Assembly: GCA_019828595.1 (NCBI GenBank)
Contig: JAHQRK010000021.1
Coordinates: 62,001-126,000 of the forward strand
DNA length: 64,000 bases
Origin: Aphanomyces cochlioides
Lineage: Eukaryota; Oomycota; Saprolegniomycetes; Saprolegniales; Verrucalvaceae
Direction of reading: 5' to 3'
In this document: positions 31,120 through 62,850 of the stretch, in pieces
Numbering within the stretch: position 1 is the first letter of the stretch
Layout of the letters: every line of letters starts with the position of its first letter
The notes under the pieces: generated by a model
Databases searched by the model: none
What the model was told of the DNA's origin: nothing
What the model saw: only the letters and a program-made list of their open reading frames with translations
Made by a program: the position numbers and the translations under genes

Positions 31120-31454
31120 TGGGTTTGTGTTCGTTATATCCACCTCGCTAGACCCAACGATGACTCGGCAAGTGCGAATCATACAGTTAATAGCTTCAAA
31201 ACACATTTGCCGTGTTTCACTTGAACATGACAAATGACATTCAACCGACAGCTTTCTTGACCCTTTATTTATTGTGCGATTCTCACTAATTTTGTGCTCT
31301 ACGACAGCAGCAACTACTCGTGCTCATTAAAGATATACGCGTAGACATAGAGCGGCCACACTGCCACTTGAAAAGATGTTTTGCCACGTGTCATCATAGT
31401 GCAAGTTCATGCCTCAGGCTGGGTGTGTAGGATATAATTTTCTTCTTGATTGAC
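31120..31454. other. Gap between tail-to-tail family copies P1 and P2
   Basis: 335 bp separating the 3' ends of P1 (plus) and P2 (minus). Nothing recognised besides the presumed 3' UTRs. Confidence 0.4.
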
Positions 31455-39684: not shown

Positions 39685-39749
39685 GTAAGAAATGAGAAAT
39701 CCCCTGGAATGCGATATTCTGATGACGTCATGGGTGCTTCTTGTTGACC

Positions 39750-41207: not shown

Positions 41208-43160
41208 ATGACGAAGGTTAATGAGATCCGATGCACCTCGGCTACAGCTTCGTGCACTCGCTGGTCGATTGCGTACATCATATTTGTACTCAATTTAGCT
41301 ACGACGGTAAGCAATAGATGCACTGGATGAAGAGTCTTACAGTCCTACAGCCATTCATGGGATACCTTGCAGAACCTCGTCCTGGGGGAATCACAACCGA
41401 CCACCTTCCACCTTGGACGTCGTTTGATGAATTCGTCAACGTGACTGCGACGTACCTCCAACAGCTCTACAACAACGAGATGATGGATATGGATGCCGTC
41501 GAGCGGCGAGACATGGTATGCGACGGAATATGACTTTAGCTTATGAAATGCCCGCTGAAAATATATTTGATCATCTTATCAGTATGCCAGGTAATTCTTT
41601 GCTCTCCTCTCACTCTAAGGATAACATGTGTCTTAGCATCAATGCTGTATGGGAAAGCCATGCGTGATTTTGTGGCTGCATTCTTGACAGCAAACGAAAC
41701 CAGCCGCAATTTACTAAAGCCATGGCGAATTTGCCAACATGATCGCATTCTATCAATGACGTACAGTGAACTGTGTCTATGGATGGTCGAAGAATCAGAA
41801 CCAAATCAATACACAGTGTGGACCGCTGTTGGTTTAGTCGAATCATTCATTACCTCGTGGCTCAAGTTTGTGTATCGATGTTTCTTGCCTCATATGTCGT
41901 CTATATCCTCTGGAATCGATACTACCGTCACTACATTCCACTTTTGTCCAACTTGGACTCGCCCCCGACTACGTTCGGTACGAAATCGTAGTGGGCGATC
42001 CAGCGTATGCAATTTTGAGCAATCCAATTGTAACATTTGGGATGGTTGTGGACAATTGGTGGGGCATGGGCTATGTTACTCTGGCCACTCATTCGTGTGA
42101 GTCAATTCCAAGACATGTTTTTGTATGTGAGTGGTTGTATTTATCTGTCCCGATATGTATTCAAACTTTATTTGCCCCTGACTAATTTGGGGTTGTTAGG
42201 TCTGGCTAGCCTACCTCGGAATGCGCGTACTCTCGTCACTGGTCAAATGGCGGCGGTGGGAAGCTTCATTTGCGCCAGTGGATCCAGCATTCCTAGCCGT
42301 GTGTGCTTACGTGTACAGCGACCCTATTACGACGCTCATGTTGACAACAAGCATGGTGTATCAATCATATGAAATGGCTGGGTTGTTTCTACCTCCAGAG
42401 CTGGAAAATCAAGCGATTGAAGGCATTACAGGTTCATATCTGCTGACCTTGTGCTAAAATTTACAGTTTCGAGTACGTCCATTCTCATGGCTATACTCCC
42501 ATTCATTTACTCGAGTTTGGCAGCTGTATGGGCTCGCAAAACAACAAGTAAGCAAAATAGTTTCTATTTATGCTGATCAACGGCGATGGTATAGATCGCG
42601 TCCATCCTCTCACGTCTTCACAGTCAATGAGAAAGTCGGTGAGCGACTACTCGTACAACGACATGAAAGCACTCCTTTTGCTCGCTTTAACGATGAAGAA
42701 GCAAGCCAAACGTGCAACGGGAGCTGTGCTTCATGAATTATACCAAGACAGCCCACGATACCGCAGCATTCCACTGTTTAACCATCGAGCTGCCGATTGT
42801 TTTATCTTGTGTTACAAAGCCGACGGAGGTGTAGACCGGCAAGCCCGCCTTAGCTTGCTTTCATGGCTTGATCCGCAGCTTGACGATGCCAAATTTGGCA
42901 TTCGCGAGTGCACATCGCTGCACTTTCAATGCGTTTGTATCGTCAATAACGAAGGCTGCCCAAGCTTCATGCCAGTTTCGAAGTCAGCGAAATGCATTCA
43001 TGCAGGCGATTCGCATTGTCAATGGGTCATGTCACGAGTACAATTTAAACTAACTGTCTATGATGGAAAGTTTGGCGTTTCAATGACGCAAGCGAAGGCC
43101 CACATGTGGGACTATCACATAGAGGGGCGAGTTACTCGAAATAGTGACAAGAATTGGTAG
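41208..43160 (+). pseudogene. Family copy P6, pseudogene with a lost stop codon
   Basis: Starts at ATG 41208 (MTKVNEIRC). Six exons can be followed. A 16-19-bp deletion near 41515 removes the segment ending in TNTF and shifts the frame. One base is lost near 41887, a few bases near 41953, and one is gained near 42091, all in exon 3. Exons 4-6 are nearly clean. The normal terminal codon after CQWVM is TCA (43032-43034) instead of TGA, so the frame runs on for 38 more residues to 43160. The accumulation of separate indels indicates long loss of constraint. Confidence 0.87.
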
Positions 43161-44133: not shown

Positions 44134-44304
44134 CCCATGAAAAAGGCAAAGAAGTTGCCGATATAACAAGAAGAGTTACGTTTTCCTTCGTCGACTAGCC
44201 GATATAATTGTGTCTGTCAACTCAGCTTGGAAGTTGGCGGGATGTAGAGAGATATGCATTACTTTTTCGTAGACTTATTTCTTCAATTCAATTGAAACAG
44301 GGTT

Positions 44305-46180
44305 TTACATGACCCACTGGCACTTGGAGTCCGCTACATGAATACATTGACGAGTCTTGGCGGAGGCCTTGAAAGTTTCGCAGCCTTCTTTATCGATGAC
44401 GCAAACGCAACGGGAATGTGCTGACGAACACATTGGAATAGCGAGATCAGGATCATTTTCTAGTCGATCCAAGCACGAGAGTAAACTCAATCGAACTTGC
44501 ATATCTAGTTCGCCGTCGATGTTGTAACATAAGACAAAACAATCGGCAGCTCGATGGCTAATTAACGGCAATTTGCGATAGCGTGGATTCTTGTAATATA
44601 AAGCGTGCAGTGAGCCTCCGATTGATTCCTTTGGGAATCTTCTCACAGTCAAAGTAAGGAAAAACAGCGCTTTCAAGTCGTTGAATGAAAAATTGCTCAC
44701 CTTTTGCCTAATAACGATGGAGTTTGTTACGTCTACGCGGTCTACAAAATATCATTTCAAACAAAATCCATGTTACCGACGACAACTTACTGCGTTTGCG
44801 TTGACTCCACGCCAAAGATGCATGTGAAAGTGGAATAGGTAGAGTTGCCGTGAGATAAGCCACCAGCAATGAAGCTGCTTGATTTGTAAGATAAATAGTA
44901 GTTGGAATACTTTGATTTACCTGAGAAAGACTCGACAGCTTGATTGTCAAGCTCGGCCGACTGGAAAAAACAACCAAAGGTGTAGAAAGTCCAAACAATG
45001 GGTGTTGAGCACATCAGAGTCATGAGGGGTCCGCATTGAAAGTATGTTGCAATGGCGATAAAAGCTGGGTCGATCGCGGCATAAAATTTTTCCCATCGAC
45101 GTCGTTTGGCCACAAAAGAGAGAACCTGTGCTCCGTAGTAGGATACCCATATCTACAACGCTTGTCATCCGGTCATGCAAGCCAATAAATACTTACAAAT
45201 CGTGCGAGGTACATACAACCGCAGACGTACACCCAGGCGTCATGGAATTGAGTCACGCGCATAATTGCAAGAATAATATACCCTGTACCCCAAAGGCCAT
45301 CTAGGGCCGTTAAAAATACCAGGACCGGTTCGCTTAAAATTGCATACAAGGGATCTCCAACCACAATTTCATACCGATCGTACTTGGGATCAAGTCCAAG
45401 ATGACGCAAATTGGTCAAGAGTGGAATGTAATGGCGGTAGTATCGAGTCCAGAGCACGTAAGATAAATAACTTGCAACAAAACATCGATAGGCAAACTTG
45501 GCCCAACAAGATTCTGGGGACTCACGTACAATGGCTGCCCCCCAAACGATATACTGATTCGGCTCAGTGTCGCTCAATATCCAGAGACACAATTCGCCGT
45601 ACGTGAACGACATCAGGCGCTCGTGTTGACACATGCGCCACGGTTGCATTTCATTCCGCAGTGTCTCGTTGGACGCAAGAAAGTTTGTGACAAATTCACG
45701 TACGCCGTTGCTGTACAGCGCCGCCCCTATTGTTGTTTTATTAACTGAGGTAGACGAGGCAGGAGTACCTGGCATTCTGATGTAGTAGCCAAAGGCTTTG
45801 TTGCTGGGAACTTCAGATGGCAGTATCATGGAATACCTGAGCGCAAACGAATTGGTAGCAATGTCATGGGCACTGATAGAATACACGTCCACAGTCATAT
45901 TGTTGTAAATCCTTTGAAGAAACGTTGCTGTCCCATTAACGTATTCATCAAACGAGTCCCACGACGGAAAGTTGCTTGCTTCAACGCCACCAGGTCGAGG
46001 CTCAGTGAGGTAGGCCGTGAAAGGCTAAATTTGATGGATCAGAAGACCCGTCAAAGGCAATAAAGGGCTACATACCGTTGAAACCAAGTTGACTGCAAAG
46101 AAGACATTGTAAGCGATCGACCAGCGAGAAAACGTAGTTGATCTTGCGACTGGTTGACGAAATTCTTCGACTTTAGTCAT
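44305..46180 (-). CDS. Family copy P7: polytopic membrane protein, 547 aa, intact, left arm
   Basis: Exons on the minus strand: 46180-46076, 46024-45769, 45726-45197, 45152-44921, 44874-44791 and 44741-44305. All are in phase with GT-AG introns, and exons 2-4 are 256, 530 and 232 nt as in P1. The protein begins MTKVEEFRQPVARS and has the family layout: an N-terminal helix, a long loop with NGTATF, NNMTVD and SNETLR glycosylation sites and MCQHERL, about five further helices, the signature RYEIVVGDPLYAILSEPV, and a C-terminal domain ending SKCQWVM. It is one of two tandem genes in the arm, 1,157 bp downstream of P8 in the same orientation. An identical copy lies in the right arm. Function unknown. 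Confidence 0.88.
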
Positions 46181-47337
46181 GCTGTCAAGGTCACAAGGCT
46201 TTGGTCTTTGCTGTTATTTTGGTTCATGGCAATTCACTTCTAACAATAGATTGAAAGTGGTTACAAAAATAGAGACTTTTACATACCCTTTGGGTGCGTC
46301 TGGTTAAATCTCAAAATCAAAATGCTATTTTCAGCTAGAATGGGATCAACGACTTATGGCATACTACACCCTTTTGCGTTTAAGTTAGGTCGATGTTTGA
46401 TTGACATATTCTGTTCAAAAGAATTCAAGGTCAATGACATTTCAATAAACACAACTGCATTTCAATTAAGTCTCAGTTTCATCAACAGCATTTTAAATGA
46501 GGATGCCATTTTGAGGCCAACAATAATTGAGGTCAAAACATGAAGTTGTTTATCTCACAGTGTTTTGCACCAAATCCAATATGGGATGGGATATACTCGC
46601 TGGAGGCTCCCAAAATACCATTTTACTGGTACGAAATGGCCAGTGTTAACTTTTTTCCAAGTGATGTTGTCCTTTCCAGTCGCGGAGTTGACGGTTTCTA
46701 AATGCCATTGATGGGCCAATTTATTACTGGTTACCAGACGCTCGCTAAGAAGTGCGCAAGGTTTGCGATAAGCACAATATGATAGTCGTGGAAGATGTTA
46801 TGTCAAATCAAAAGCCTGACATGTGAAAACCCCAGCTCTGTTCTTTTCTTCAGAAATCTAGCAGTTCGTTCTTATGACAAAGCAGACATATACAGCTGCA
46901 TCTACCGGTAGATAAACATATTGGATGTGTGCTTTGAGTGGGATGCTTTACACCAACCGAGTTAATGAGCACGACCATTTCCCCACAGAAAGATATCACT
47001 TGTACCATCTGGCTTGCGTTGTTGTGGTCATGCTAGAACATCGTATTTACGCAGCATAAGCGATAGACTCTCTTGAGTATTCACTCAAACAAGTCAATCA
47101 GTGTGTTGAGCGCGATGAGTCGTGAGTGCATCGAGTAGCCTCGTGTATTGCGAATATGCTATAAATTGTAGCGCTTGAAACCAAACGACGGAGTTGACAG
47201 ACGCAAAGAAGTGGACATTGCAATGTGTATCCGTCGATAGCAATCTGTTCCAATCGTGCCAAGGAAATCGTGGGACCACCTTGCGAACGCTTCATGTAAC
47301 ACTTCTCCTCAGATTATGCATTCAACATTCATAATGG
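46181..47337. other. Intergenic spacer between P7 and P8 (left arm)
   Basis: About 1.16 kb upstream of P7. It is identical by eye to 58352-59508 in the right arm. No exon is recognised. A repeated motif caAAATGcTATTTT / gatGCCATTTTGAGG occurs about 180 bp apart, but no transposon structure is clear. Confidence 0.45.
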
Positions 47338-49198
47338 TTACATAACCCATTGACAATTTGCTTCGGCGAGATGAATACATGGTGTATTCTTGGAAGTCGC
47401 ACAGTCTTCTTTATCTATAACACAAACACAGCGAGGGTGAACTGTCGAGCACTTGTGGATTGCATGACTTGGGTCGTCGAGTAATGGATTTATCCACGAT
47501 AATAAGCTCAATCGAACTTGTAAGTCTAGGGTTCCATCTGATGTGTAGCACAAAACAAAACAGTCTGCAGCTCGGTGGCTAATCAAAGGCAACTTTCGAT
47601 AGCGTGGGTTCTTATGGTATAAAGCGTGGAGTGAGCCTCCAATCGAATTCTTAGGTTGATGTCTCACGGTCAATGCCAGGAGTAGAAAAGCTTTCAGGTC
47701 ATTGTACGAGCGGTGGCTAACTTTTTGTCTAATAACGAGTGAATCTGTCACGCCAACGCGATCTACAGCATTTTCCATCAGACAAATCTAGTCTATCGAG
47801 GACAATTTACTGCGTTTGCGCCGCCTACATTCCATGGCAGTGCGTGAAAATGGAATAGGCAGAGTTGCCGCGAGAAAAGCCACCACAAGTGTTGCTAGAC
47901 AAACTAAACTAGTATGATCGTTCTCGACCTACCTGTGACAGCTTCTACGGCTTCATTGTCATGAGAAGCTGGCTGAAAGAAACATCCCGCGGTGTAAAAT
48001 ATCCAAACAAGTGGCGTCGACATCAAGAGACTCATGTAAGGACCACTTTGAATGTATGTGGCAATGGCCAAGAAACCAGGATCAACTGGGGCATACCATG
48101 CTTCCCACTGTCGTCGCTTGACCGCGAATGAGAAAATCTGCATTCCGAGGTAGGATAGCCAAATCTACAATTAATTCAAATGAGCACAAGTCATGACATT
48201 CAGTAGATACACATCGAGCGAGGAACATGCAACCGCTGACATATAACCAAATGTCGTGGAACTGCGAGACACGCATGATTCCGAGAATAATGTACCCTGT
48301 GCCCCACACGTTGTCAATAATGATTGCTGTCACCACGAGGGGATCACACAAAATGGTATATAAGGGATCTCCGACGACAATTTCGTATCGAACGTATTCA
48401 GGCTTAACGCCAAGTCGTTGTAAATTGGACAAGAGAGGGATGTAGTGACAGTAGTAGCGTGTCCAAAGCACGTAGCAAACGTAGATAGAGAGCAGACAGC
48501 GCAGAATAAATTTGGTCCAGCATGTGGCTGCTGATTCATGTATCATTGCCGCTCCCCAGACTGTATATTGAGTTGGCTCAGGGTCTTTCACAATCCAGAG
48601 GCATATTTCGCCATAAGTAAAGGATAATAGACGCTCGTGTTGGCACATTCGCCACGGTTGCAATTCGTTGCGTTTTGTTTCGTTGGAGGTAAGAAAGTTG
48701 GTGGCAAAGGCGCGAACGCCATTGCTATATAGCCCAGCTCCTAAAACATGAATGCTTCGTAATCAAAGATAGCAAAGAAAGACTTACCAGGCATTCTTAT
48801 GTAGTAGTCGAACGCATTGCGGTTTGGGATCTCAAAAGGCAGAGTCATGGTGTATCGGATCACAAACGAGTTTGTTGGAATATCTCGACGACCAACTGTG
48901 TTGATTTCCATCGTCTCGTTATTATAGAGTGTTTGGAGGAACGTTGTTGTGCCATTGACGTAATCTTCAAACGAATTCCATGCTGGAAAGTTGTTTGATC
49001 TGTTTCGACCAGGCGGTGGCTCCGATAGATAGGCCATGAATGGCTACAGACATTCGATCAGACGCCATGACCATGTAGATAACGGGTGCGTACCGTGGAC
49101 ACCAAATTGACAATAAAAATGACATTGTGTGCGATAGACCAGCGAGTGCATCTAGCAGGCCTTGCCGTAGGTTGTCGAATCTCGTCAACTTTGTCCAT
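47338..49198 (-). CDS. Family copy P8: polytopic membrane protein, 543 aa, intact, left arm
   Basis: Exons: 49198-49094, 49043-48788, 48740-48211, 48164-47933, 47894-47811 and 47762-47338; internal exons are again 256, 530 and 232 nt. It starts MDKVDEIRQPTARPARC, so the second residue of the usual MTKV is changed. The loop has NGTTTF and NNETME glycosylation sites and MCQHERLLSFTYGE. The signature is RYEIVVGDPLYTILCDPL, and the C-terminal domain ends ANCQWVM. It is more similar to P7 than to P1. Its start lies only about 80 bp outside the inner end of the arm that differs between copies, so the promoter region falls partly in the diverged zone. Function unknown. Confidence 0.88.
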
Positions 49199-49457
49199 GC
49201 AGTCAAGACGATACTATGCGCTGTCAATGTGTCGGTTTTGCTGTCTGGAGGGCCTTTCGCCAAAATTAGAATAGACCAATGACGTCCGGAAGGATGGTCA
49301 TCGGTATCTCGACTTGAAATCTTGACAAAGGCATTTTGAATCATTGGAGCATTGAGAAGTTCTGGTATCATCAATTAAGATATGTGATGCATTCAATACG
49401 CAACAAGCAAGACGGCTCAGTTCTCATTCTCTATCTCTGCTACATGCCTTGCTGCAT

Positions 49458-49601
49458 GATGACCCATGGAACCTTTTTGCCTCATCTTGTGACACCATCA
49501 ACTAGCTGAGAGAACGGACTTCAATTAAAAAGCTGGACTCCCTCATAGCCAGGTGTTAGAGGCCATAAAGTCAGGAGACAAAGCGCACGGTCACAAAACT
49601 A
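49458..49601 (+). repeat. Unit S, 144 bp, inverted copy at 61737-61880
   Basis: Starts GATGACCCATGGAACC and ends CACAAAACTA. The reverse complement at 61737-61880 has the same length with two mismatches in the first 12 bases. At the left locus it follows the inner end of arm L after a single T. On the right it lies beyond the outer end of the arm, separated from it by repeat X. Confidence 0.92.
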
Positions 49602-49782
49602 GTTTTTCTCATTGTCGATAGCATGACGAATATAGCTGAAGTCGAGTTGACTTTCTTGGAGTAACTTTCGCGAAGATTGTTGTTGAGAGCCGACAATGTT
49701 AGCGACATTTCGACTTTAGATATTTGAGAGGCACGTGTAGCTCTGACATGAAAGCCAAATCTACAGACGATAAAATGACTTT

Positions 49783-51160
49783 TCATTTGACCCTTTGACA
49801 ACTCAACTCGCTACCATGAATGCAACGAGTTGTCATTGAAGGTGTTGCGAGAGTGCTGCAGCTTTCAAAGTTGATCAGACAAACGCAATTTTCATGCCGG
49901 GATGTGCACTGCGGAATTGCATACTTGGGATCGCTGAGTAGAGGATCGAGCCATGCAAGCAAACTCGGACGTATTTGCTGGTCTATGCTTCCATCAGATT
50001 TGTAGCACAGAACAAAACAATCTCCAGCACGATGGCTTGCGAGCGGAATCTTTCGATATCGCGGATTGTCTTGGTATAATTTGTGCAACGTTCCTCCCGT
50101 ACTCCGCTTGGCATGTGTTTTCATCGTTATTGCGAATAAGATACGTGCTTTCACATCGTTGTAAGAAAACTGGCTCAACTTGATAGATTCAAGACGTGAA
50201 CCCATGGGTCGTACTCGATCTAGACACATCCATGAACAAATATAATTGAAAGACTAGTACAAATAGATTTGCACCGTGAGCATGCGTTGGAGAGAGCGAG
50301 AATATATGAAAGGCAGAATCGACATGAGAAACGACATGGATGCGATCGCTTATTCAAAATCAAATTCAGTCAAAGGCTCGACATGTGGCCATACCTGAAA
50401 TTCCTTCGATGGCTTGGTTGTCGAGATAGGCTGGCTGAAAGTGGAGAGCCAAGTCGTAAAACATCAGTACCATCTTGGTGGTACAAAACAAACTCATTCC
50501 TGGTCCATTGTACAAATATGTACAAATCGCCAAGAAAGCTGGATCCACTGGGACATACTATGCTTCCCATCGCCTCCACTTGATGAATGACGAGAGGGCT
50601 CTCATGCCAAGGTATGCGAACCAAACCTACAAAATCGTAGTGAGACTTTCAACTAAAATGCAGATTACGAATCGAGAGAGATACATGCAGCCGCTAATGT
50701 ACATCCAAACATCATGGAATTGATTCACACGAATGAGACTCAGAGTCACATATCCAGATCCGATCCAAATATCCAAGACCATGCCCAGGTACACGACAGG
50801 GTCGCTCAAGATTGCATACGCTGGGTCGCCCACGACGACTTCGTATCGTATATACTCTGGTGAAAACCCGAGCTGTCGTAGATTGAACAAGAGAGTCTTG
50901 TAGTGGCAGTAATAGCGTGTCCAAAGAAGGTACAGGATGTACAAAGCTAGGATCACTCGCAAGACAAACTTGATCCAGCAAGTTTCGATCGATTCATCAA
51001 TGTGCGAAGCAAACCAGACTGTGTATTGATTTGCTTCAGTGCCTTGGACAATCCAAAGGCACATTTGGCTGTATGGCAACGAGAGGAGGCGATTATGTTG
51101 ACACATTTGCCAAGGTTTGAGGTGCTGGCAAGATGTCTCGTTGGATGTGAGGAAGGATGC
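49783..51160 (-). pseudogene. Family copy P9/P10, 3' part: exon 3 (truncated) to exon 6, pseudogene
   Basis: Minus-strand similarity begins abruptly at 51160 with ASFLTSNETS, in the middle of family exon 3, exactly where the right palindrome arm ends. It runs through exon 3 (MCQHNRLLSLPYS, RYEVVVGDPAYAILSDPV), exon 4, exon 5 and exon 6. TAG at 50558-50560 replaces the Trp of the family EAWYAPVDP motif, and the usual C-terminal QWVM is changed to QRVK. Exons 1-2 and the first codons of exon 3 are missing here. They are found at 61881-62357 on the same strand. The phase and residue count match if the two parts are placed side by side, so this was one gene split by the insertion. Confidence 0.88.
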
Positions 51161-51326
51161 TGCAGCAAGGCATGTAGCAGAGATAGAGAATGAGAACTGA
51201 ACCGTCTTGCTTGTTGCGTATTGAATGCACCACATATCTTCATTGATGATACCAGAACTTCTCAATGCTCCAATGATTCAAAATGCCTTTGTCAAGATTT
51301 CAAGTCGAGATACCGATGACCATCCT

Positions 51327-51631
51327 TGTTGAACTCTCTGGACATCTCAAAGATGTGAAAATGTCACGAGTTTGAACTTTGGCGAAGTTGAACGGGATGA
51401 ACCATTGACATTGAACAGAAGACAGAGACGCGAGGAGCAACGTCTCCTAAGGACATGAAGAACGAACTATGTAGATACGAGAAACAAGTAGTTAGACTAG
51501 GGTCAGCTGGATCAATGTGCTTAATTCACTTTTCGATTTACTTCCTTGGTCTCAAGTCGTTTGCCTTACCGCATCCGTTCCGATTCCTCTCGCAGTCAAC
51601 AGTTGACAAAATCGACAACAACGAATCAACA
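51327..51631 (+). repeat. 5' LTR of the copia element
   Basis: 305 bp, TG...CA termini, identical by eye to 56089-56393. The sequence just inside the LTR (GGTTCTAAGCCC) should be the primer-binding site, but it is not the usual initiator-tRNA complement I would expect. Confidence 0.95.
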
Positions 51632-51669
51632 GGTTCTAAGCCCAAGAACCGGAACACCAAGCAAGGAAG

Positions 51670-52591
51670 ATGTCTGGAACGACAACAAGCATTAAACTCA
51701 ACAACCGAAACTTTCGCGACTGGCGAACGTATCTCAAAGGACGCTTGATGATGAAAGGACTTTATGGAACGCTATCCCCTCAAGAAAACAACCCAATTAG
51801 CGATGAAGACAACCAAAAAGCGTACGGGATTTTAATCGAAAACGCTGGAGACGGAACAGTACCGTCACATTGATGGCATTGCGGCTGTCGATCTGGCATT
51901 CAAGGCACTGCAAACGTATCACGAACCCATAACCAAGGCCGATCGCATCGAAATCCTGAAGGAGTGGTCTCAAATTGAATGGAACTGCAAGAGAGAGAAC
52001 TTACCCAACTTTATCCATCGATTTGAAGTCCTTGCGCGACGTTTACGAGACATCGGTGTTACTGAGTCAGACGAAAACTTGGTAGCCAAGCTATTGGCAT
52101 TGACGCCTTGGAGTTTTCGGCATATTGTTGACCGACTGCTTCACACGGCGGACCAAAGCTTATCAACTGTGAAAGTTGCTCTCGAGGCAGAATGGAAGGC
52201 GGCACTACGCAATTGAGCAATGAGCAAGAACGATGAGATGTTCAACAGTGAGCGAGCTCTTACCGCAGACGGCGGTCGAAGAGGTGGTCGTGGTCATGGC
52301 CGGGGACGAGGGCAAGCCCATGGACAAGGAGCCAACCAAGCCACCAAGAGTAATAGCGCAGCCAAGAAGGGGACATGCCACTACTGTGGAAAAGAAGGGC
52401 ATTGGGCATCAGAATGTCGAAAGAAAATGGCCGATCAAGCCGAAAACCCCCAAGAGAGATCAAACCAAGCAACTGACGAAGAGTTCATGTTCACAGCCGA
52501 TGACACAGTGGACTTTGATAGTGAAAACTATCAAAATTGTGACGAACAAGACGGCAAAATGGAAACCATGACTCAGAGGATGGCCATGTGA
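51670..52591 (+). pseudogene. copia gag (UBN2-like capsid plus CCHC zinc knuckle), disrupted
   Basis: Starts MSGTTTSIKLNNRNFRDW, the typical N-terminus of copia gag. A one-base indel near 51857 shifts the frame. The capsid continues with LKEWSQIEWNCKRENLP and LLALTPWSFRHIVDRL until TGA 52214-52216. Past that stop the nucleocapsid has a Gly/Arg-rich stretch and a clear zinc knuckle CHYCGKEGHWASEC. At least two lesions are therefore present in gag alone. Confidence 0.85.
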
Positions 52592-55500
52592 TTGAAGATG
52601 TCAAAACGGATCCACCCGCTCAACACGCCGATATCTCAATCGAAAACACAGAACCGGCAGATCCCGAACCATTTTGGAGCGACGCACAATGGGGGCCAGC
52701 AGACTATCGGCCTACAAGAACAATCAACGTCCGAGGTGTTGAAACGACAGTCACATTCATGAGCAAGGAGGACATCCTCATTGCAATCCACATGCTAGAC
52801 CCCGACGGATCGCAAATCCGACCTCTGCCAGCATTCCTCACATCAAGGTATTTGGTCACGTGCTACTCACCAAGTGCATACAAAGAACCTTGTGTAACCA
52901 CGTCAGTCTACAGCCTGGGCAAATGATTGTGAAAATCCCATGACAATGCACGAATGGATGGAAAAGGACGCGTACTTCTCGTACATTCACAAAGTAGAAG
53001 GCTCAACACCACGATAGGCGGACGAATTGCTCTCCTTGCAAACGATCCACATGCAAGTCGCACACGATTTTCGACAGCTGCATTTTGCATTGTCAATTTT
53101 TGAAGGACCTGCGCATACAATTATCGTCGACTCCGGTGCATCGTCTCACATGACGGGAAATGAGGCCTACCTACAAGACATAAAGCCTTGCAACAGACGT
53201 GTCGTGGTCGCTGATGGCAAGAGCGTGGTGGCAAACAGCTACGGCACAATGAAATTCAAGACCAGCCTCGGTACAAACATCTTCTTGATCCATGTCTTGT
53301 TCGTCGAAGGCATGCCAACAACCCTGCTATCCATTCCAGCTCTCATGCGATCTGCTCCCAACGCTAGTGTGAAGTTTGAGAAAGACAAGTGCACAATCTA
53401 CGACGGAAGAAGGGAAGTCGCTAAAGCAAGTGTTACCCCTGATGGACGGCTTTACACTCTTGACGCCATACCAACTCAAGAGCACGCGAACACAGCACTA
53501 AACGACACAGCTCAACTGTGGCACAACCGTATTGGACACTTGCCACTGGCCGCTCTACAATTGTGCGCCAACAACGAACTTGTGATTCCAAAGCCACTTG
53601 GAAATCAAATTGCATCATGTTTGGATTGCCCTAGAGCGAAAATGCATAAATCATCCATGCCCAAAACGCACACGCGCACCTTCAAAGCCGGAGAATGCTG
53701 GCAATCAGACACAAAAGGATCACCTCCGACAATGTCCAACGGCGGTAGTCGATTCTATACAGTCTACGTCGATGACGCCACTGGGTACAAAATCGTACGC
53801 ATCATCAACTCCACAGACACCGAAACCCAGGCAAAGAATTTCGCCGAGATTCTAGCGTTTTCAGAACGTCAAACAGGAAGAAAGGTAAAAGTCTTCCGCT
53901 TTGACGACGGCCCCGAATACAAGTCACAAGCCTTCAACAATTGGCTCAAGAGGCGCGGTATCAAGCATGAACGCTCAGCAGCCGATAACCAATCTCAAAA
54001 TGGCGTCGCCGAACGAGCCCACCGTACCATTATGGAAATGGCCTTGGCCATGCTCATTCATGCTCGACTGCACAAAAAATGGTGGGCGGACGCTGTCAAT
54101 ACTGCTGTATTTATCTTGAATCGGGCCCTACACACCAACAAGAGCACCAAGACTCCAATAGAGCTTTCAGTGGTCACGTACCAACACTGAAAAACATGCG
54201 CGTTTTCGACTGCAATTGTTTTAACATGGTGCGCAATCCCGAAAAACGCAACAAATTGGAGCCGAAAGCCACATTGTGCATCATGATCTCGAGCACATGC
54301 CCCCTCCACAAACACCATTAAGACGGTCATCCAGACTCCGAGTACCAACCACACGATACCAAGATTCAGCAGCACTAATCACACCCTTGGACACGAACCT
54401 AGAGCGCTACCACATTGAAAATTTTATGCCTGAACATGAAATCACGTACCGCTCTGACGGAGTCGAATACGCCTGCAACGCGGCTGTCCACCTTCATCCC
54501 GTACCACAAAGCCATAAAGAAGCCATGGCATCTCCAGACTGGCGAAACTGGAAAGCGGCTGAAGAAGCTGAAGTCGCGCAACTCTTAGCTTTAAAGACCT
54601 GGACCGTTGCCAAGCCTCCAGTTGATCGCAAAATCATCCGCGGGCGATGGGCATATGCCCGCAAAACTGACGCAGCTGGCAACATCATTCGCTGGAAAGC
54701 GAGATGGGTTTTAAAAGGCTTCAACCAAGTCGAAGGGGTTGACTACGATGAGTCGTCATCAAACGTCATCAAAATGACATCCGTGCGAGCGATACTCGCT
54801 GTTGCCGCCGCCCGCAATTTGGTCATTGAGTAAGCCGACGCCATCAATGCCTACATCCAAGCCAAGTTAGAGCGACCGATATGGGCAGTCGAACCCGAAG
54901 GATATGAAACTCAAGCAGGACTCGCAGCACATGTACACAAGGCGCTCTACGGACTCAAAGTGGCCACGAATGGGAAATTCATTGCAAGCAGAAAATCGCC
55001 GAGCTTGGGTGGAAGCAATGCGCACACGATCCATGCGTATTCACACGTGATCATGACCAAGGTTTGGAATTTCTTGATACATACGTTGACGATTTTATTG
55101 TTGCAACCACAAAACAATCACTCATGGACAAGATCATGGAAGATTTTGCATCAAAAATGAATCTCAAACGCATGGGACCCATCAGCTACATATTGGGCAT
55201 CAGAGTTACAAGAAGTATCGAGAACAAGACGCTTGCAATGGTACAAGATGCATACACTGACAAGGTCCTGGCACGTTTCAATATGACCAAATGCCACCCC
55301 GTAGCAACGCCAGAAGTACCCGACCAAGAAGACCTTTGGCATGACGACGCGCAGCAGAATGCAAATCAAGGGGAGTTCAGAGCAATCGTTGGATCACTGG
55401 TTTACTTGATGGTTTGTACAAGACCCGATATCGCCCACGCCGTTCAAAGATTATCACGCCACCTTCACGATCCAAGAGCACCGCATAAGGTCGGCGCAAA

Positions 55501-56083
55501 GCGAGTGCTACGATACTTAGCAGGCACAAGACAACACGGTATCATGTTTGGACACGGAAAGCCTATCATACAAGGTTACTGTGATGCCTCCTGGGCAACA
55601 AAACCCGACCGAAGATCCACAACTGGCTTTTGTTGGTCCTTCCTTGGCGGGCCACTAATGTGGAAAAGCGTACGCCAACGTATCACAGCCTTATCAAGTT
55701 GTGAAGCGGAGTACGTAGCAGCAGCCGAGGCAGCAAGAGAATCGGTGTGGCTCAACGGACTCATGAGAGACCTTGGCATCATCCAAAAGACAATGCATCT
55801 CAACTGCGACAACATGTCTGCAATTTCCACCGCCAAGTCTACAGCCATACATGAGCGAACGAAACTCAGCGACGTGAGACACCACTTCCTTCGTGAGCTC
55901 ATTTAACAAGGCACATTGACCCTCAACTTCGTTCCGACCGCTGACATGCACGCCGACGCATTAACGAAGACGTCAACCAAACATGGCATCCAAAAATTCG
56001 TCAAGTGGCACATGGAGACAACGACCGACCACCAAACACCCGCCAACAAAAAACGGACACAAGACAACATTCACCAAAGTTAG
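52588..56083 (+). pseudogene. copia pol (protease, integrase, reverse transcriptase, RNase H), disrupted
   Basis: Protease DSGASSHMTG (near 53132), the pre-integrase block LWHNRIGHLPL, and the integrase core with SDTKG, the middle Asp region and the NGVAERAHRT Glu block lie in one open frame, 53027-54190. The frame breaks near 54187. Reverse transcriptase follows, with KTWTVAKPPVDRK, KARWVLKGFNQVEG and YVDDFIVA, then RNase H with GYCDASWATKPDRRSTTGF and SSCEAEYVA. Lesions include TAG 53015-53017, frameshifts near 52920 and 54187, TAA 54831-54833 before ADAINAYIQA, a disrupted stretch near 54960-55070, and TAA 55904-55906 before QGTL. Two of the stops look like CAA-to-TAA changes. Confidence 0.88.
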
Positions 56084-56088
56084 GGGAG

Positions 56089-56393
56089 TGTTGAACTCTC
56101 TGGACATCTCAAAGATGTGAAAATGTCACGAGTTTGAACTTTGGCGAAGTTGAACGGGATGAACCATTGACATTGAACAGAAGACAGAGACGCGAGGAGC
56201 AACGTCTCCTAAGGACATGAAGAACGAACTATGTAGATACGAGAAACAAGTAGTTAGACTAGGGTCAGCTGGATCAATGTGCTTAATTCACTTTTCGATT
56301 TACTTCCTTGGTCTCAAGTCGTTTGCCTTACCGCATCCGTTCCGATTCCTCTCGCAGTCAACAGTTGACAAAATCGACAACAACGAATCAACA
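56089..56393 (+). repeat. 3' LTR of the copia element
   Basis: 305 bp, identical by eye to the 5' LTR, preceded by the purine tract and followed directly by ATCCT. Confidence 0.95.
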
Positions 56394-56490
56394 ATCCTTC
56401 CAGACGTCATTGATCTATTCTAATTTTGGCGAAAGGCCCTCCAGACAGCAAAACCGACACATTGACAGCGCATAGTATCGTCTTGACTGC

Positions 56491-58351
56491 ATGGACAAAG
56501 TTGACGAGATTCGACAACCTACGGCAAGGCCTGCTAGATGCACTCGCTGGTCTATCGCACACAATGTCATTTTTATTGTCAATTTGGTGTCCACGGTACG
56601 CACCCGTTATCTACATGGTCATGGCGTCTGATCGAATGTCTGTAGCCATTCATGGCCTATCTATCGGAGCCACCGCCTGGTCGAAACAGATCAAACAACT
56701 TTCCAGCATGGAATTCGTTTGAAGATTACGTCAATGGCACAACAACGTTCCTCCAAACACTCTATAATAACGAGACGATGGAAATCAACACAGTTGGTCG
56801 TCGAGATATTCCAACAAACTCGTTTGTGATCCGATACACCATGACTCTGCCTTTTGAGATCCCAAACCGCAATGCGTTCGACTACTACATAAGAATGCCT
56901 GGTAAGTCTTTCTTTGCTATCTTTGATTACGAAGCATTCATGTTTTAGGAGCTGGGCTATATAGCAATGGCGTTCGCGCCTTTGCCACCAACTTTCTTAC
57001 CTCCAACGAAACAAAACGCAACGAATTGCAACCGTGGCGAATGTGCCAACACGAGCGTCTATTATCCTTTACTTATGGCGAAATATGCCTCTGGATTGTG
57101 AAAGACCCTGAGCCAACTCAATATACAGTCTGGGGAGCGGCAATGATACATGAATCAGCAGCCACATGCTGGACCAAATTTATTCTGCGCTGTCTGCTCT
57201 CTATCTACGTTTGCTACGTGCTTTGGACACGCTACTACTGTCACTACATCCCTCTCTTGTCCAATTTACAACGACTTGGCGTTAAGCCTGAATACGTTCG
57301 ATACGAAATTGTCGTCGGAGATCCCTTATATACCATTTTGTGTGATCCCCTCGTGGTGACAGCAATCATTATTGACAACGTGTGGGGCACAGGGTACATT
57401 ATTCTCGGAATCATGCGTGTCTCGCAGTTCCACGACATTTGGTTATATGTCAGCGGTTGCATGTTCCTCGCTCGATGTGTATCTACTGAATGTCATGACT
57501 TGTGCTCATTTGAATTAATTGTAGATTTGGCTATCCTACCTCGGAATGCAGATTTTCTCATTCGCGGTCAAGCGACGACAGTGGGAAGCATGGTATGCCC
57601 CAGTTGATCCTGGTTTCTTGGCCATTGCCACATACATTCAAAGTGGTCCTTACATGAGTCTCTTGATGTCGACGCCACTTGTTTGGATATTTTACACCGC
57701 GGGATGTTTCTTTCAGCCAGCTTCTCATGACAATGAAGCCGTAGAAGCTGTCACAGGTAGGTCGAGAACGATCATACTAGTTTAGTTTGTCTAGCAACAC
57801 TTGTGGTGGCTTTTCTCGCGGCAACTCTGCCTATTCCATTTTCACGCACTGCCATGGAATGTAGGCGGCGCAAACGCAGTAAATTGTCCTCGATAGACTA
57901 GATTTGTCTGATGGAAAATGCTGTAGATCGCGTTGGCGTGACAGATTCACTCGTTATTAGACAAAAAGTTAGCCACCGCTCGTACAATGACCTGAAAGCT
58001 TTTCTACTCCTGGCATTGACCGTGAGACATCAACCTAAGAATTCGATTGGAGGCTCACTCCACGCTTTATACCATAAGAACCCACGCTATCGAAAGTTGC
58101 CTTTGATTAGCCACCGAGCTGCAGACTGTTTTGTTTTGTGCTACACATCAGATGGAACCCTAGACTTACAAGTTCGATTGAGCTTATTATCGTGGATAAA
58201 TCCATTACTCGACGACCCAAGTCATGCAATCCACAAGTGCTCGACAGTTCACCCTCGCTGTGTTTGTGTTATAGATAAAGAAGACTGTGCGACTTCCAAG
58301 AATACACCATGTATTCATCTCGCCGAAGCAAATTGTCAATGGGTTATGTAA
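56491..58351 (+). CDS. Family copy P8', 543 aa, identical to P8, right arm
   Basis: Mirror copy of P8. Exons: 56491-56595, 56646-56901, 56949-57478, 57525-57756, 57795-57878 and 57927-58351. The translated protein is the same as that of 47338-49198. The copia element ends 98 bp upstream of its ATG, separating this copy from the upstream sequence the left copy has. Any LTR promoter activity could therefore affect it. The nearest differences between the two P8 copies (56402, 56413) lie between the element and the start codon. Confidence 0.88.
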
Positions 58352-59508
58352 CCATTATGAATGTTGAATGCATAATCTGAGGAGAAGTGTTACATGAAGC
58401 GTTCGCAAGGTGGTCCCACGATTTCCTTGGCACGATTGGAACAGATTGCTATCGACGGATACACATTGCAATGTCCACTTCTTTGCGTCTGTCAACTCCG
58501 TCGTTTGGTTTCAAGCGCTACAATTTATAGCATATTCGCAATACACGAGGCTACTCGATGCACTCACGACTCATCGCGCTCAACACACTGATTGACTTGT
58601 TTGAGTGAATACTCAAGAGAGTCTATCGCTTATGCTGCGTAAATACGATGTTCTAGCATGACCACAACAACGCAAGCCAGATGGTACAAGTGATATCTTT
58701 CTGTGGGGAAATGGTCGTGCTCATTAACTCGGTTGGTGTAAAGCATCCCACTCAAAGCACACATCCAATATGTTTATCTACCGGTAGATGCAGCTGTATA
58801 TGTCTGCTTTGTCATAAGAACGAACTGCTAGATTTCTGAAGAAAAGAACAGAGCTGGGGTTTTCACATGTCAGGCTTTTGATTTGACATAACATCTTCCA
58901 CGACTATCATATTGTGCTTATCGCAAACCTTGCGCACTTCTTAGCGAGCGTCTGGTAACCAGTAATAAATTGGCCCATCAATGGCATTTAGAAACCGTCA
59001 ACTCCGCGACTGGAAAGGACAACATCACTTGGAAAAAAGTTAACACTGGCCATTTCGTACCAGTAAAATGGTATTTTGGGAGCCTCCAGCGAGTATATCC
59101 CATCCCATATTGGATTTGGTGCAAAACACTGTGAGATAAACAACTTCATGTTTTGACCTCAATTATTGTTGGCCTCAAAATGGCATCCTCATTTAAAATG
59201 CTGTTGATGAAACTGAGACTTAATTGAAATGCAGTTGTGTTTATTGAAATGTCATTGACCTTGAATTCTTTTGAACAGAATATGTCAATCAAACATCGAC
59301 CTAACTTAAACGCAAAAGGGTGTAGTATGCCATAAGTCGTTGATCCCATTCTAGCTGAAAATAGCATTTTGATTTTGAGATTTAACCAGACGCACCCAAA
59401 GGGTATGTAAAAGTCTCTATTTTTGTAACCACTTTCAATCTATTGTTAGAAGTGAATTGCCATGAACCAAAATAACAGCAAAGACCAAAGCCTTGTGACC
59501 TTGACAGC
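58352..59508. other. Intergenic spacer between P8' and P7' (right arm)
   Basis: Mirror of 46181-47337, identical by eye; no gene recognised. Confidence 0.45.
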
Positions 59509-61384
59509 ATGACTAAAGTCGAAGAATTTCGTCAACCAGTCGCAAGATCAACTACGTTTTCTCGCTGGTCGATCGCTTACAATGTCTTCTTTGCAGTCAA
59601 CTTGGTTTCAACGGTATGTAGCCCTTTATTGCCTTTGACGGGTCTTCTGATCCATCAAATTTAGCCTTTCACGGCCTACCTCACTGAGCCTCGACCTGGT
59701 GGCGTTGAAGCAAGCAACTTTCCGTCGTGGGACTCGTTTGATGAATACGTTAATGGGACAGCAACGTTTCTTCAAAGGATTTACAACAATATGACTGTGG
59801 ACGTGTATTCTATCAGTGCCCATGACATTGCTACCAATTCGTTTGCGCTCAGGTATTCCATGATACTGCCATCTGAAGTTCCCAGCAACAAAGCCTTTGG
59901 CTACTACATCAGAATGCCAGGTACTCCTGCCTCGTCTACCTCAGTTAATAAAACAACAATAGGGGCGGCGCTGTACAGCAACGGCGTACGTGAATTTGTC
60001 ACAAACTTTCTTGCGTCCAACGAGACACTGCGGAATGAAATGCAACCGTGGCGCATGTGTCAACACGAGCGCCTGATGTCGTTCACGTACGGCGAATTGT
60101 GTCTCTGGATATTGAGCGACACTGAGCCGAATCAGTATATCGTTTGGGGGGCAGCCATTGTACGTGAGTCCCCAGAATCTTGTTGGGCCAAGTTTGCCTA
60201 TCGATGTTTTGTTGCAAGTTATTTATCTTACGTGCTCTGGACTCGATACTACCGCCATTACATTCCACTCTTGACCAATTTGCGTCATCTTGGACTTGAT
60301 CCCAAGTACGATCGGTATGAAATTGTGGTTGGAGATCCCTTGTATGCAATTTTAAGCGAACCGGTCCTGGTATTTTTAACGGCCCTAGATGGCCTTTGGG
60401 GTACAGGGTATATTATTCTTGCAATTATGCGCGTGACTCAATTCCATGACGCCTGGGTGTACGTCTGCGGTTGTATGTACCTCGCACGATTTGTAAGTAT
60501 TTATTGGCTTGCATGACCGGATGACAAGCGTTGTAGATATGGGTATCCTACTACGGAGCACAGGTTCTCTCTTTTGTGGCCAAACGACGTCGATGGGAAA
60601 AATTTTATGCCGCGATCGACCCAGCTTTTATCGCCATTGCAACATACTTTCAATGCGGACCCCTCATGACTCTGATGTGCTCAACACCCATTGTTTGGAC
60701 TTTCTACACCTTTGGTTGTTTTTTCCAGTCGGCCGAGCTTGACAATCAAGCTGTCGAGTCTTTCTCAGGTAAATCAAAGTATTCCAACTACTATTTATCT
60801 TACAAATCAAGCAGCTTCATTGCTGGTGGCTTATCTCACGGCAACTCTACCTATTCCACTTTCACATGCATCTTTGGCGTGGAGTCAACGCAAACGCAGT
60901 AAGTTGTCGTCGGTAACATGGATTTTGTTTGAAATGATATTTTGTAGACCGCGTAGACGTAACAAACTCCATCGTTATTAGGCAAAAGGTGAGCAATTTT
61001 TCATTCAACGACTTGAAAGCGCTGTTTTTCCTTACTTTGACTGTGAGAAGATTCCCAAAGGAATCAATCGGAGGCTCACTGCACGCTTTATATTACAAGA
61101 ATCCACGCTATCGCAAATTGCCGTTGATTAGCCATCGAGCTGCCGATTGTTTTGTCTTATGTTACAACATCGACGGCGAACTAGATATGCAAGTTCGATT
61201 GAGTTTACTCTCGTGCTTGGATCGACTAGAAAATGATCCTGATCTCGCTATTCCAATGTGTTCGTCAGCACATTCCCGTTGCGTTTGCGTCATCGATAAA
61301 GAAGGCTGCGAAACTTTCAAGGCCTCCGCCAAGACTCGTCAATGTATTCATGTAGCGGACTCCAAGTGCCAGTGGGTCATGTAA
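59509..61384 (+). CDS. Family copy P7', 547 aa, identical to P7, right arm
   Basis: Mirror copy of P7. Exons: 59509-59613, 59665-59920, 59963-60492, 60537-60768, 60815-60898 and 60948-61384, with the same splice signals and the same translation as 44305-46180. The 3' flank stays identical to the left copy for 171 bp, to the outer edge of the arm at 61555. Function unknown, as for P7. Confidence 0.88.
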
Positions 61385-61555
61385 AACCCTGTTTCAATTG
61401 AATTGAAGAAATAAGTCTACGAAAAAGTAATGCATATCTCTCTACATCCCGCCAACTTCCAAGCTGAGTTGACAGACACAATTATATCGGCTAGTCGACG
61501 AAGGAAAACGTAACTCTTCTTGTTATATCGGCAACTTCTTTGCCTTTTTCATGGG

Positions 61556-61736
61556 ATACGAAATATAAGCTAAAAATACGAAATTAAATGCAAGAGGTAT
61601 GAAATATAATGCAAGTCATGCGAAATATAAATCGATTTTCGTCGCGGGCCACGAAATTAAATGCAAGTCATACGAAATATATTGCAAATGGTACGAAATA
61701 TATCGCAAGTTGAACGAACTAAACCTGCAAATGGTG
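61556..61736. repeat. AT-rich imperfect tandem repeat X, 181 bp
   Basis: About eight degenerate units of 20-23 bp around the consensus TACGAAATATAATGCAAGTC, with variants such as ACGAAATTAAATGCAAG and ACGAAATATATCGCAAG. It joins the outer end of the right arm to unit S. It is not present beside arm L or unit S at the left locus, nor did I find it elsewhere in the window. Confidence 0.88.
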
Positions 61737-61880
61737 TAGTTTTGTGACCGTGCGCTTTGTCTCCTGACTTTATGGCCTCTAACACCTGGCTATGAGGGAG
61801 TCCAGCTTTTTAATTGAAGTCCGTTCTCTCAGCTAGTTGATGGTGTCACAAGATGAGGCAAAAAGGTTACATAGGTCATC
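61737..61880 (-). repeat. Unit S, inverted copy on the right
   Basis: Reverse complement of 49458-49601, same length, two mismatches. Its start (GATGACC, reading minus) directly abuts the interrupted exon 3 of P10, after TTTGATA. Confidence 0.92.
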
Positions 61881-62357
61881 TATCAAATTTCGAATTCCAT
61901 TTCCAAAGAAACCTGGCGCTGAGGAACGATTTTCAGCTTGTCATCATAGTCGAAGTACGCATCCTTATGAGATACTCAAAGATGTCACCCTTGGGGACTT
62001 CAAACGGCAGTGTCATTTCGTGACGCATTGCAAATGTGTTGGTCTTAAAATCTCGTCGGCTAACTTGATGGAATTCCATCGTTTCGTTGTTGTAGAGCTG
62101 TTGGAAATACGTTGCCGTCACTTGAACGTACTCGCCGAATGTAGTCCAAGTGGGAGGCATAATTGAAACGACTCCAACAGGCCGAGGCTCCGCGAGATAT
62201 GCCATGAAAGGCTACATAGCACGTCAGACATGCAGACTGGCCGTAGCATAAGTACCGTCGGTGCTAAGTTAAGAACAAAGAAGATATTGTACACGACTGA
62301 CCAACGTGTGCATGACGCTCTCGCCGATGGTTGTCGTATTTGCTCGACCTTGGTCAT
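61881..62357 (-). pseudogene. Family copy P9/P10, 5' part: exons 1-2 and start of exon 3
   Basis: From ATG 62357 the minus strand reads MTKVEQIRQPSARASC. An intron ends with the AG just before 62215. Exon 2 follows (PFMAYLAEPRPVGVV, NNETMEFHQVSRRD, TLPFEVPKGDIFEY). Its end is slightly altered (RM followed by GTACTT instead of RMPG-GTAAG). After an acceptor CTCAG the first codons of exon 3 read PGFFGNGIRNLI, then stop at 61881, where unit S begins. The remainder of exon 3 resumes at 51160 as ASFLTSNE. RNLI plus ASF gives exactly the family spacing seen in RDYVSQF of P1. Confidence 0.88.
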
Positions 62358-62850
62358 GCCCATGATAGCCAAATACTCGACTGTCCGAGATTCCAACGTC
62401 TCAAGCAGGAGCAAGTAATTGGGTTGCTAAATTTGGGAACGCCCCGTGTCCCGTACTTCTTAACTCTGAATAGCATCACTGCAACCTACCACGACAAAAA
62501 TGGCACCAACTTCCTTCGTGTAATCCTTGATGGTCTTTGGAACAAGATCAGATGACGAGGTTTTGAGCAAATTCGCCACTGTTCACAATGCGAGCGCAGT
62601 CTCATACTTTGCAATTTAGGTCCAGAGCATCGCTACCAACGGCATTCATATCGCTTCTTAGATCTTAGAGATGAGACTCATCTGTAGTGTGCAAGTGCCA
62701 AATGTAGATGCAAAAGTTTAACGATGAACTATAGCGTTAGCGAGGAGAGGAGCATGTCAAATGTGGTAAGAACTTGATAGATGTGATATTTGCTGTTGAT
62801 ATGACTACCAAAGAAAATTTCCCAATGTTGGAGCCCTTGTGTGAGCAGAA
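62358..62850. other. Intergenic, no gene seen
   Basis: About 490 bp between the P10 start and the stop of the PG-rich repeat gene. It would have held the P9/P10 promoter. Confidence 0.4.

What the first reader, a model, noticed from the sequence alone, without database searches (positions are those of the whole stretch)
44134..61555. Near-perfect 5.3-kb palindrome carrying two intact genes per arm
Arms L (44134-49456) and R (51161-61555 minus a 5,072-bp copia insertion) are inverted copies of exactly equal length, 5,323 bp, around a 1,704-bp spacer. Comparison by eye finds only five base differences. The encoded proteins of both gene pairs are identical. This arrangement resembles the ampliconic palindromes of animal sex chromosomes, where arm-to-arm gene conversion keeps copies the same. 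I know of no description in an oomycete. A collapsed or duplicated assembly could mimic it, but the one-sided copia insertion with its own target duplication argues that both arms exist.
Basis: seen in the sequence. Interest (0 to 1): 0.9.

Follow-up and report, generated by a model that had tools for sequence, protein, structure and literature searches.

The report
Palindrome made by re-inserted DNA circle
In a sugar-beet root-rot oomycete, two neighbouring genes appear to have been copied into a small DNA circle that then broke open and landed, flipped, inside a third related gene next door, leaving a near-perfect palindrome; this shows one concrete way such palindromes can arise.

Summary
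The palindrome is real. Arms L (44134-49456) and R (61555-51161, minus a 5,072-bp copia insertion) are 5,323 bp each and differ at six bases, not five. The organism is Aphanomyces cochlioides. The 144 bp just inside arm L (49458-49601) sit just outside arm R (61880-61737) and were found nowhere else in the assembly. So R is a circularly permuted, inverted copy of L 44134-49601. A 181-bp piece of a dispersed TIR transposon marks the closing joint; the opening point is 49456|49458. R lies inside a third paralogue, G3, whose halves abut exactly on the two sister genes whose alignments reach the break. L is therefore donor and R copy. A circular intermediate captured in a break of G3 needs the fewest coincidences; an assembly hairpin cannot produce this. 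Seven of eight substitutions lie within 181 bp of the opening point. Recency suffices for the identity; gene conversion is possible but unproven. Four more near-identical palindromes of this family were seen, and identical-score neighbours in other families are mostly inverted.

The parts
44134..49456 (+). Arm L (donor): genes G1 and G2, both on the minus strand
   Evidence: donor status
49458..49601 (+). 144-bp block directly inside arm L (upstream of G2); the permuted part of the copied segment, two differences from its copy
   Evidence: two places only in the assembly; differences
44305..46189 (-). G1; protein record AC1031_009622 fits it (whether that record was made on this arm or on R was not checked). 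Exon blocks compared: 46189-46073, 46024-45767, 45730-45191, 45152-44790, 44751-44308
47338..49207 (-). G2; protein record AC1031_009621 fits it (arm not checked)
51161..61880 (-). R insert as a whole: permuted inverted copy of 44134-49601 placed inside G3; 5,648 bp without copia and its target duplication
51161..61555 (-). Arm R, interrupted by copia
61737..61880 (-). Copy of the 144-bp block at the far end of the insert
61556..61736 (-). 181-bp filler at the closing joint of the inferred circle: end of a dispersed transposon with inverted ends (roughly 630-660 bp when both ends are present, probable TA target), truncated at its inner side
51327..56393 (+). copia element inserted in R only; LTRs 51327-51631 and 56089-56393 identical; TSD ATCCT
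56482..58351 (+). G2 copy in arm R
59500..61384 (+). G1 copy in arm R
49788..51160 (-). G3, 3' part (third paralogue, interrupted by R)
61881..62360 (-). G3, 5' part, on the far side of R
49456..49458 (.). Opening point of the inferred circle; base 49457 is missing from R

Best explanation
Segment 44134-49601 (genes G1 and G2 with their flanks) was copied into a circular molecule. The circle closed through a 181-bp transposon-end fragment, with overlaps of 4 bp (ACTA) and 1 bp. It opened once, at 49456|49458 with loss of one base, and was captured in inverted orientation by a clean break in the neighbouring paralogue G3. This disrupted G3 and made a palindrome with G3's 3' part as spacer. A copia element later entered the new arm. 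Shown from sequence: permuted order, inverted orientation, filler, split G3, no further copies found. Inferred: the physical circle, end joining, and the order of events. The arms are alike mainly because the event is recent (inference).
For: The 144-bp block is inner to L and outer to R, with only two places found in the assembly. The two ends of R are neighbours in L, one base apart. The two ends of the L segment are joined in R through a fragment of a repeat that has 44 other listed matches, some of them parts of one copy. G3's 5' part lies at 61881-62360 and its 3' part at 51160-49788. Aligned separately, the halves abut at position 555/556 of the p38 slice (window 38000-39700) and 541/542 of the p29 slice (window 29200-31150) (arithmetic by hand). 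No target duplication seen, and overlaps of at most 1 bp at the insertion joints (read by eye). Only two full copies of the probed kilobase of arm L and no uninterrupted G3 elsewhere in the assembly. The same block swap is described as the mark of circular intermediates in human duplications (PMC7450558, abstract and Results read; PMC7188851, abstract and first part of Results read).
Against: No circle was observed and no read data were available. The closing joint carries 181 bp of foreign filler, whereas PMC7450558 reports changes of 1-27 bp and overlaps of one or two bases. On the five other paralogues the 5' half aligns only to 78-80 bp before the break, and extrapolation leaves 5-14 bp unaccounted for. 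No relative's empty site could be checked. None of the four other palindromes seen shows a permuted block within the context held, so this is one event and not shown to be a general route.
Confidence: 0.76

Rival explanations
1. Replication-based template switching (MMBIR/FoSTeS): synthesis left G3, copied 49458-49601, jumped to a transposon end, jumped to 44134, copied to 49456 and returned to G3. No circle is needed.
For: Short overlaps (4, 1, 0-1 bp) and a repeat-derived filler at joints are typical of template switching (recalled).
Against: The last copied base (49456) would have to fall next to the first (49458) by chance, roughly 1 in 2,000 over 5.5 kb (my estimate), and synthesis would have to return to the same point of G3 without loss.
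Confidence: 0.15
2. L was once a tandem duplicate joined by the transposon fragment; one unit's length was copied into G3 and the tandem later collapsed.
For: PMC7188851 names this as a typical false positive for circle signatures.
Against: No second 144-bp block remains beside L, and the listed filler matches include none beside L (40 of 304 candidates scored); the copied stretch would have to be one unit less one base. Pop-out from a tandem is itself a circle.
Confidence: 0.06
3. Palindrome kept alike by arm-to-arm gene conversion, as in ampliconic palindromes; the differences at the ends are stretches that conversion did not reach. This does not exclude the circle origin: it would act after it.
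For: Seven of eight substitutions lie in a 193-bp arc of the 5,468-bp circle, reached by 0 of 200,000 random placements. In the sister palindrome C14:312524-316217 all 17 substitutions lie in the outer 137 bp and none in the remaining 3,557 bp.
Against: Both differences in the isolated 144-bp block, which conversion should hardly reach, lie within 12 bp of the opening point and none in the other 132 bp; this fits damage near the break better. One difference in about 5.1 kb and identical LTRs fit a young event. It does not explain the permuted order.
Confidence: 0.2
4. Assembly artefact (hairpin read or collapsed copy).
For: Palindromes are a known assembler trap (recalled); the C32:39390-50728 palindrome, almost without spacer and with arms identical over 5,638 bp, could be one.
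Against: R is permuted, has transposon filler, a one-sided copia with TSD, and divides G3.
Confidence: 0.03

Closest known systems
Circular-DNA-mediated segmental duplications in human (PMC7450558; abstract and Results read)
   Same: Block order A-B/C-D becomes B-A/D-C; opening point adjacent in the donor; no homology at joints; small losses.
   Different: There donors of 22-3,918 kb, copies 0.09-58 Mb away or on another chromosome, joints with 1-27 bp changes; here 5.5 kb, under 20 kb away, inverted next to its donor so that a palindrome results, inside a paralogue, with a 181-bp transposon filler.
eccDNA-mediated duplication in human (PMC7188851; abstract and first part of Results read)
   Same: Swapped order between donor and copy without a second flanking block.
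   Different: Human; no palindrome or gene-splitting target in the parts I read.
Zygosaccharomyces bailii region in wine yeast (PMC3053389; passages read)
   Same: Permuted copies from a circle, inserted with little or no sequence similarity at breakpoints.
   Different: Horizontally acquired 17-kb segment, several insertions, circle with a functional ARS; not a local palindrome.
eccDNAs of Magnaporthe oryzae (PMC9694575; passages read)
   Same: Filamentous plant pathogen; the same swapped-order signature was sought.
   Different: [quoted passage not shown] a fungus, not an oomycete.
Ampliconic palindromes of sex chromosomes (PMC3403216, PMC8981503; search listing only)
   Same: Near-identical inverted arms; multicopy genes and spacer (recalled).
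   Different: No evidence here for sex linkage or for a need of gene conversion; origin traced to a permuted insertion.

Membership tests
Duplication through a circular intermediate | Swapped block order between donor and derivative (A-B/C-D to B-A/D-C) | tested here: met
   49458-49601 = 61880-61737 while 44134-49456 = 61555-51161
Duplication through a circular intermediate | Ends of the derivative are adjacent in the donor | tested here: met
   49456 and 49458, one base lost
Duplication through a circular intermediate | Donor ends joined inside the derivative with only short indels or microhomology | tested here: inconclusive
   Joined, but through a 181-bp transposon fragment with 4-bp and 1-bp overlaps
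Duplication through a circular intermediate | Acceptor site contiguous before insertion | tested here: met
   G3 halves abut exactly on the two paralogues whose alignments reach the break; on the other five extrapolation over 78-80 bp leaves 5-14 bp. No relative with an empty site was available.
Duplication through a circular intermediate | No tandem copy at the donor that could mimic the pattern | tested here: met
   Two places for the 144-bp block and two full copies of the probed kilobase
Duplication through a circular intermediate | Physical circle | not testable with these tools
   No reads or eccDNA data
Palindrome maintained by gene conversion | Inverted arms over 99% identical around a spacer, with multicopy genes | tested here: met
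Palindrome maintained by gene conversion | Arms more alike than their age allows | tested here: inconclusive
   Differences clustered at ends, but age unknown and copia LTRs identical
Palindrome maintained by gene conversion | Sex-linked or non-recombining chromosome | not testable with these tools
   No linkage data
Assembly hairpin | Mirror-symmetric joint without other change | tested here: not met
   Permuted order, filler, split G3

The most novel reading that the evidence does not exclude
In Aphanomyces cochlioides, clustered gene families grow mainly by inverted duplication, part of it through DNA circles re-inserted beside their source. The resulting palindromes may then be kept identical by arm-to-arm conversion, an autosomal counterpart of sex-chromosome palindromes in a plant pathogen.
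Probability: 0.3. Interest if true: 0.8.

Novelty: new variant of a known kind. Interest (0 to 1): 0.6.

Why it matters
It resolves to the base how one near-perfect palindrome arose: which arm is the source, where the circle opened and closed, and which gene was hit. Re-integration of gene-bearing circles has been proposed as a source of variation in filamentous plant pathogens; a dedicated search in 306 Magnaporthe oryzae genomes, limited to non-repetitive regions, found no case (PMC9694575, passages read). My searches for extrachromosomal circular DNA with Phytophthora and for eccDNA with oomycete listed 8 and 5 papers; none of the titles reports such a case in an oomycete. The site also makes arm-to-arm conversion in such a palindrome directly testable, because the donor and all joints are known.

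Tried and rejected
R as the ancestral arm: rejected, because R interrupts G3, whose halves fit together on sister genes.

Canonical transposon insertion at the closing joint: rejected. Of 16 element ends printed, 15 read T-ACTACACC and one (L034, second end) reads TAGTACACC, consistent with a TA target; R has A in place of the T, and the element is cut off at its inner side.

The 144-bp block as a dispersed repeat: rejected, two places only.

A second haplotype with whole G3: not in the assembly.

Circle signature in the other palindromes: looked for and not found in four of four. The context held was limited: 26 kb for C34 and for C14:256-282, 20 kb for C32, 10 kb for C14:312-322.

Function of the proteins: no Pfam match above cut-off in the members scanned; the only matches listed (42570-43160, 35279-36028, P0003) are far below it. 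The 15 relatives listed are all from Aphanomyces. The AlphaFold model was too poor to search with (mean pLDDT 52).

Sampling notes. The palindromes outside the window came from listings of this family's matches, and C14:312-322 was picked because one search showed an inverted pair there, so they are no random sample. Ten other family stretches (L018-L027, 6-10 kb each) hold no near-identical inverted pair beyond one of 97 bp in L021. As non-family comparison I hold only window 1-29,000 and L011 and L012, without such pairs. The tallies of identical-score pairs were read by eye and rest on equal bit scores, not on DNA; some listings are capped (one search scored 100 of 271 candidates, 92 of 149, 9 of 120).
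Full report
OBSERVATION. Self-BLAST of the window and a base-by-base comparison confirm the palindrome at the stated coordinates. Arms of 5,323 bp lie around a 1,704-bp spacer. Arm R is interrupted by a copia element (51327-56393) with identical 305-bp LTRs and the target duplication ATCCT. Of ten exon blocks compared, nine are identical as DNA and one carries a single synonymous difference.

ORGANISM AND GENES. The window is C14:62001-126000 of a 76.2-Mb, 94-contig assembly. The best protein match of G1 is a hypothetical protein of Aphanomyces cochlioides on a contig of 1,534,234 bp, the length of C14. Of the 15 matches listed, two are from A. cochlioides (fitting G1 and G2) and 13 from A. 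euteiches. The published reference is UMN_Aphcoc_1.0 (cited in PMC11653986, passages read; the genome paper itself was not read). The family has no Pfam match above cut-off in the members scanned. Diverged members, whole or partial, lie from about 29 to 62 kb of the window in both orientations.

THE PERMUTED BLOCK. The 144 bp immediately inside arm L (49458-49601) also occur, inverted and with two differences, just outside arm R (61880-61737), and were found nowhere else in the assembly. Read in the orientation of L, R is therefore [49458-49601] - 181 bp - [44134-49456]. The two ends of R are neighbours in L, with base 49457 lost, and the two ends of the L segment are joined in R. This is the A-B/C-D to B-A/D-C swap that PMC7450558 uses to recognise duplication through a circular intermediate; PMC7188851 uses the same kind of order swap.

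THE FILLER. The 181 bp at the closing joint belong to a dispersed repeat (45 listed matches, one of them itself, some being parts of one copy; 40 of 304 candidates scored; identities 81-98% apart from itself). Seven of the nine other copies examined carry a second, inverted copy nearby, giving elements of roughly 630-660 bp. Fifteen of 16 ends printed read T-ACTACACCATTTGC or nearly so, which suggests a TA target (inference). In R the T is replaced by the A of the L sequence and the inner part is cut off. So this looks like a captured fragment with a 4-bp overlap (ACTA) on one side and 1 bp on the other, not a transposon insertion.

THE TARGET. A third paralogue, G3, has its 3' part in the spacer (49788-51160) and its 5' part beyond R (61881-62360), both on the minus strand. 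The two halves were aligned separately to seven paralogues. On the two whose alignments reach the break, p38 and p29, the halves abut at 555/556 and 541/542, with no gap or overlap. On the other five the alignment of the 5' half stops 78-80 bp before the break, and extrapolation leaves 5-14 bp. R is thus an insertion into G3 without visible loss or target duplication, and L is the donor. No uninterrupted G3 exists elsewhere in the assembly.

MECHANISM. The simplest account is one circle, opened once and captured in a break of G3. Template switching would need its last copied base to fall beside its first by chance and a return to the same place in G3. A tandem-duplication history would need a lost second unit and a copied piece of exactly one unit less one base. 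The physical circle, end joining, and the timing of copia after the insertion are inferred.

IDENTITY OF THE ARMS. Eight substitutions separate donor and copy (six in the arms, two in the 144-bp block). Seven lie within 181 bp on one side and 12 bp on the other of the opening point; none of 200,000 random placements gave so tight an arc. Either mutations arose near the ends during repair, or the ends keep an older divergence that conversion erased elsewhere. The isolated 144-bp block, which conversion should hardly reach, has both its differences in its outer 12 bp and none in the other 132 bp, which favours the first. A sister palindrome favours the second: at C14:312524-316217 / 321396-317704 all 17 substitutions lie in the outer 137 bp, with one single-base indel and no substitution in the next 3,557 bp. 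I leave conversion, acting after the circle event, at about one in five for this site.

A WIDER HABIT. Among the family loci fetched, four further near-identical inverted pairs turned up: C34:128063-130621/134440-131882 (2,559 bp, identical); C14:265140-267746/275018-272408 (two substitutions and a 4-bp indel, plus a 372-bp outer block with two mismatches, and an LTR element in one arm only); C32:39390-50728 (arms identical over 5,638 bp, almost no spacer, perhaps an artefact); and the C14:312-321 pair. None shows a permuted block within the context held. Ten other family stretches (L018-L027) show no such pair beyond one of 97 bp. In listings for this family and five other families (trypsin, C1 and S8 peptidases, P450, sugar transporter), I counted neighbours within 30 kb on one contig with identical bit scores and spans. 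Eight loci are inverted: the window itself; C14:265711/273646; C5:649495/652112; C5:634150/638154; C23:3581293/3595153 with 3584610/3591836; C5:1716980/1720690; C1:2112767/2117327; C15:351474/373496. One is direct (C4:1016618/1020937), one is a mixed triple (C5:580307, 593776, 604535), and the sugar transporters have none. Without this family the count is six inverted, one direct and the mixed triple. Direct copies may also be under-represented by assembly or by recombinational loss.

LITERATURE. Full-text searches for palindrome with oomycete, inverted and gene conversion (2 papers), extrachromosomal circular DNA with Phytophthora, eccDNA with oomycete, two of Aphanomyces, inverted repeat and segmental duplication (first 10 of 545 listed) and four of Phytophthora, inverted duplication, palindromic, effector and tandem (first 12 of 125 listed) gave no title reporting such a case in an oomycete. 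A review treats eccDNA in filamentous pathogens as a speculation (PMC9779921, passages read). PMC9694575 found no eccDNA-mediated translocation in 306 M. oryzae genomes, with scripts limited to non-repetitive regions (passages read). The library lacks most subscription papers.

VERDICT. A real palindrome with an explained origin: a new variant of circle-mediated duplication, in which local inverted re-insertion into a paralogue makes a palindrome. The sex-chromosome comparison describes the look but is not needed for the origin.

Noticed in passing
C14:312524-316217 and 321396-317704 (L049): Palindrome of the same family: 17 substitutions all in the outer 137 bp, then 3,557 bp without any (one indel). 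Looks like a conversion or recombination edge.
   Followed up: partly
C34:128063-130621 and 134440-131882 (L015): Inverted pair of 2,559 bp, identical, with gene copies truncated at the right arm.
   Followed up: partly
C14:264768-267746 and 281653-272408 (L013, L014): Near-identical palindrome with an LTR element (376-bp repeats, 275262-280964) in one arm only; the other arm lacks about 6.3 kb including it.
   Followed up: partly
C32:39390-50728 (L016, L017): Palindrome with almost no spacer, arms identical over 5,638 bp; real or a hairpin artefact.
   Followed up: no
C5, C23, C1, C15 (places): Identical-score neighbours in peptidase and P450 families are mostly inverted (six loci, against one direct and one mixed triple), so the habit seems not confined to this gene family.
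   Followed up: partly
61556-61740 and L029-L037: Dispersed transposon with long inverted ends built of short internal repeats, probable TA target; listed matches 81-98% identical to the filler.
   Followed up: partly
44305-44751 and 47338-47787: A conserved last exon block of the family (148-149 codons, stop to stop) is missing from the public protein models that fit G1 and G2 (P0001, P0002).
   Followed up: no
L021, L022, L023 (C89, C68, C53): Stretches 99.9-99.98% identical on three contigs, two of them short; perhaps alternative haplotypes left in the assembly.
   Followed up: no
21480-22784, 24552-25829, 27640-28290: Three different DDE transposase ORFs (best Pfam matches PF13359, PF04827, PF03184) just left of the gene cluster.
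   Followed up: no
16203-17735: Cyt-b5 plus fatty-acid desaturase ORF with a 478-codon ATG-to-stop frame open on the opposite strand.
   Followed up: no
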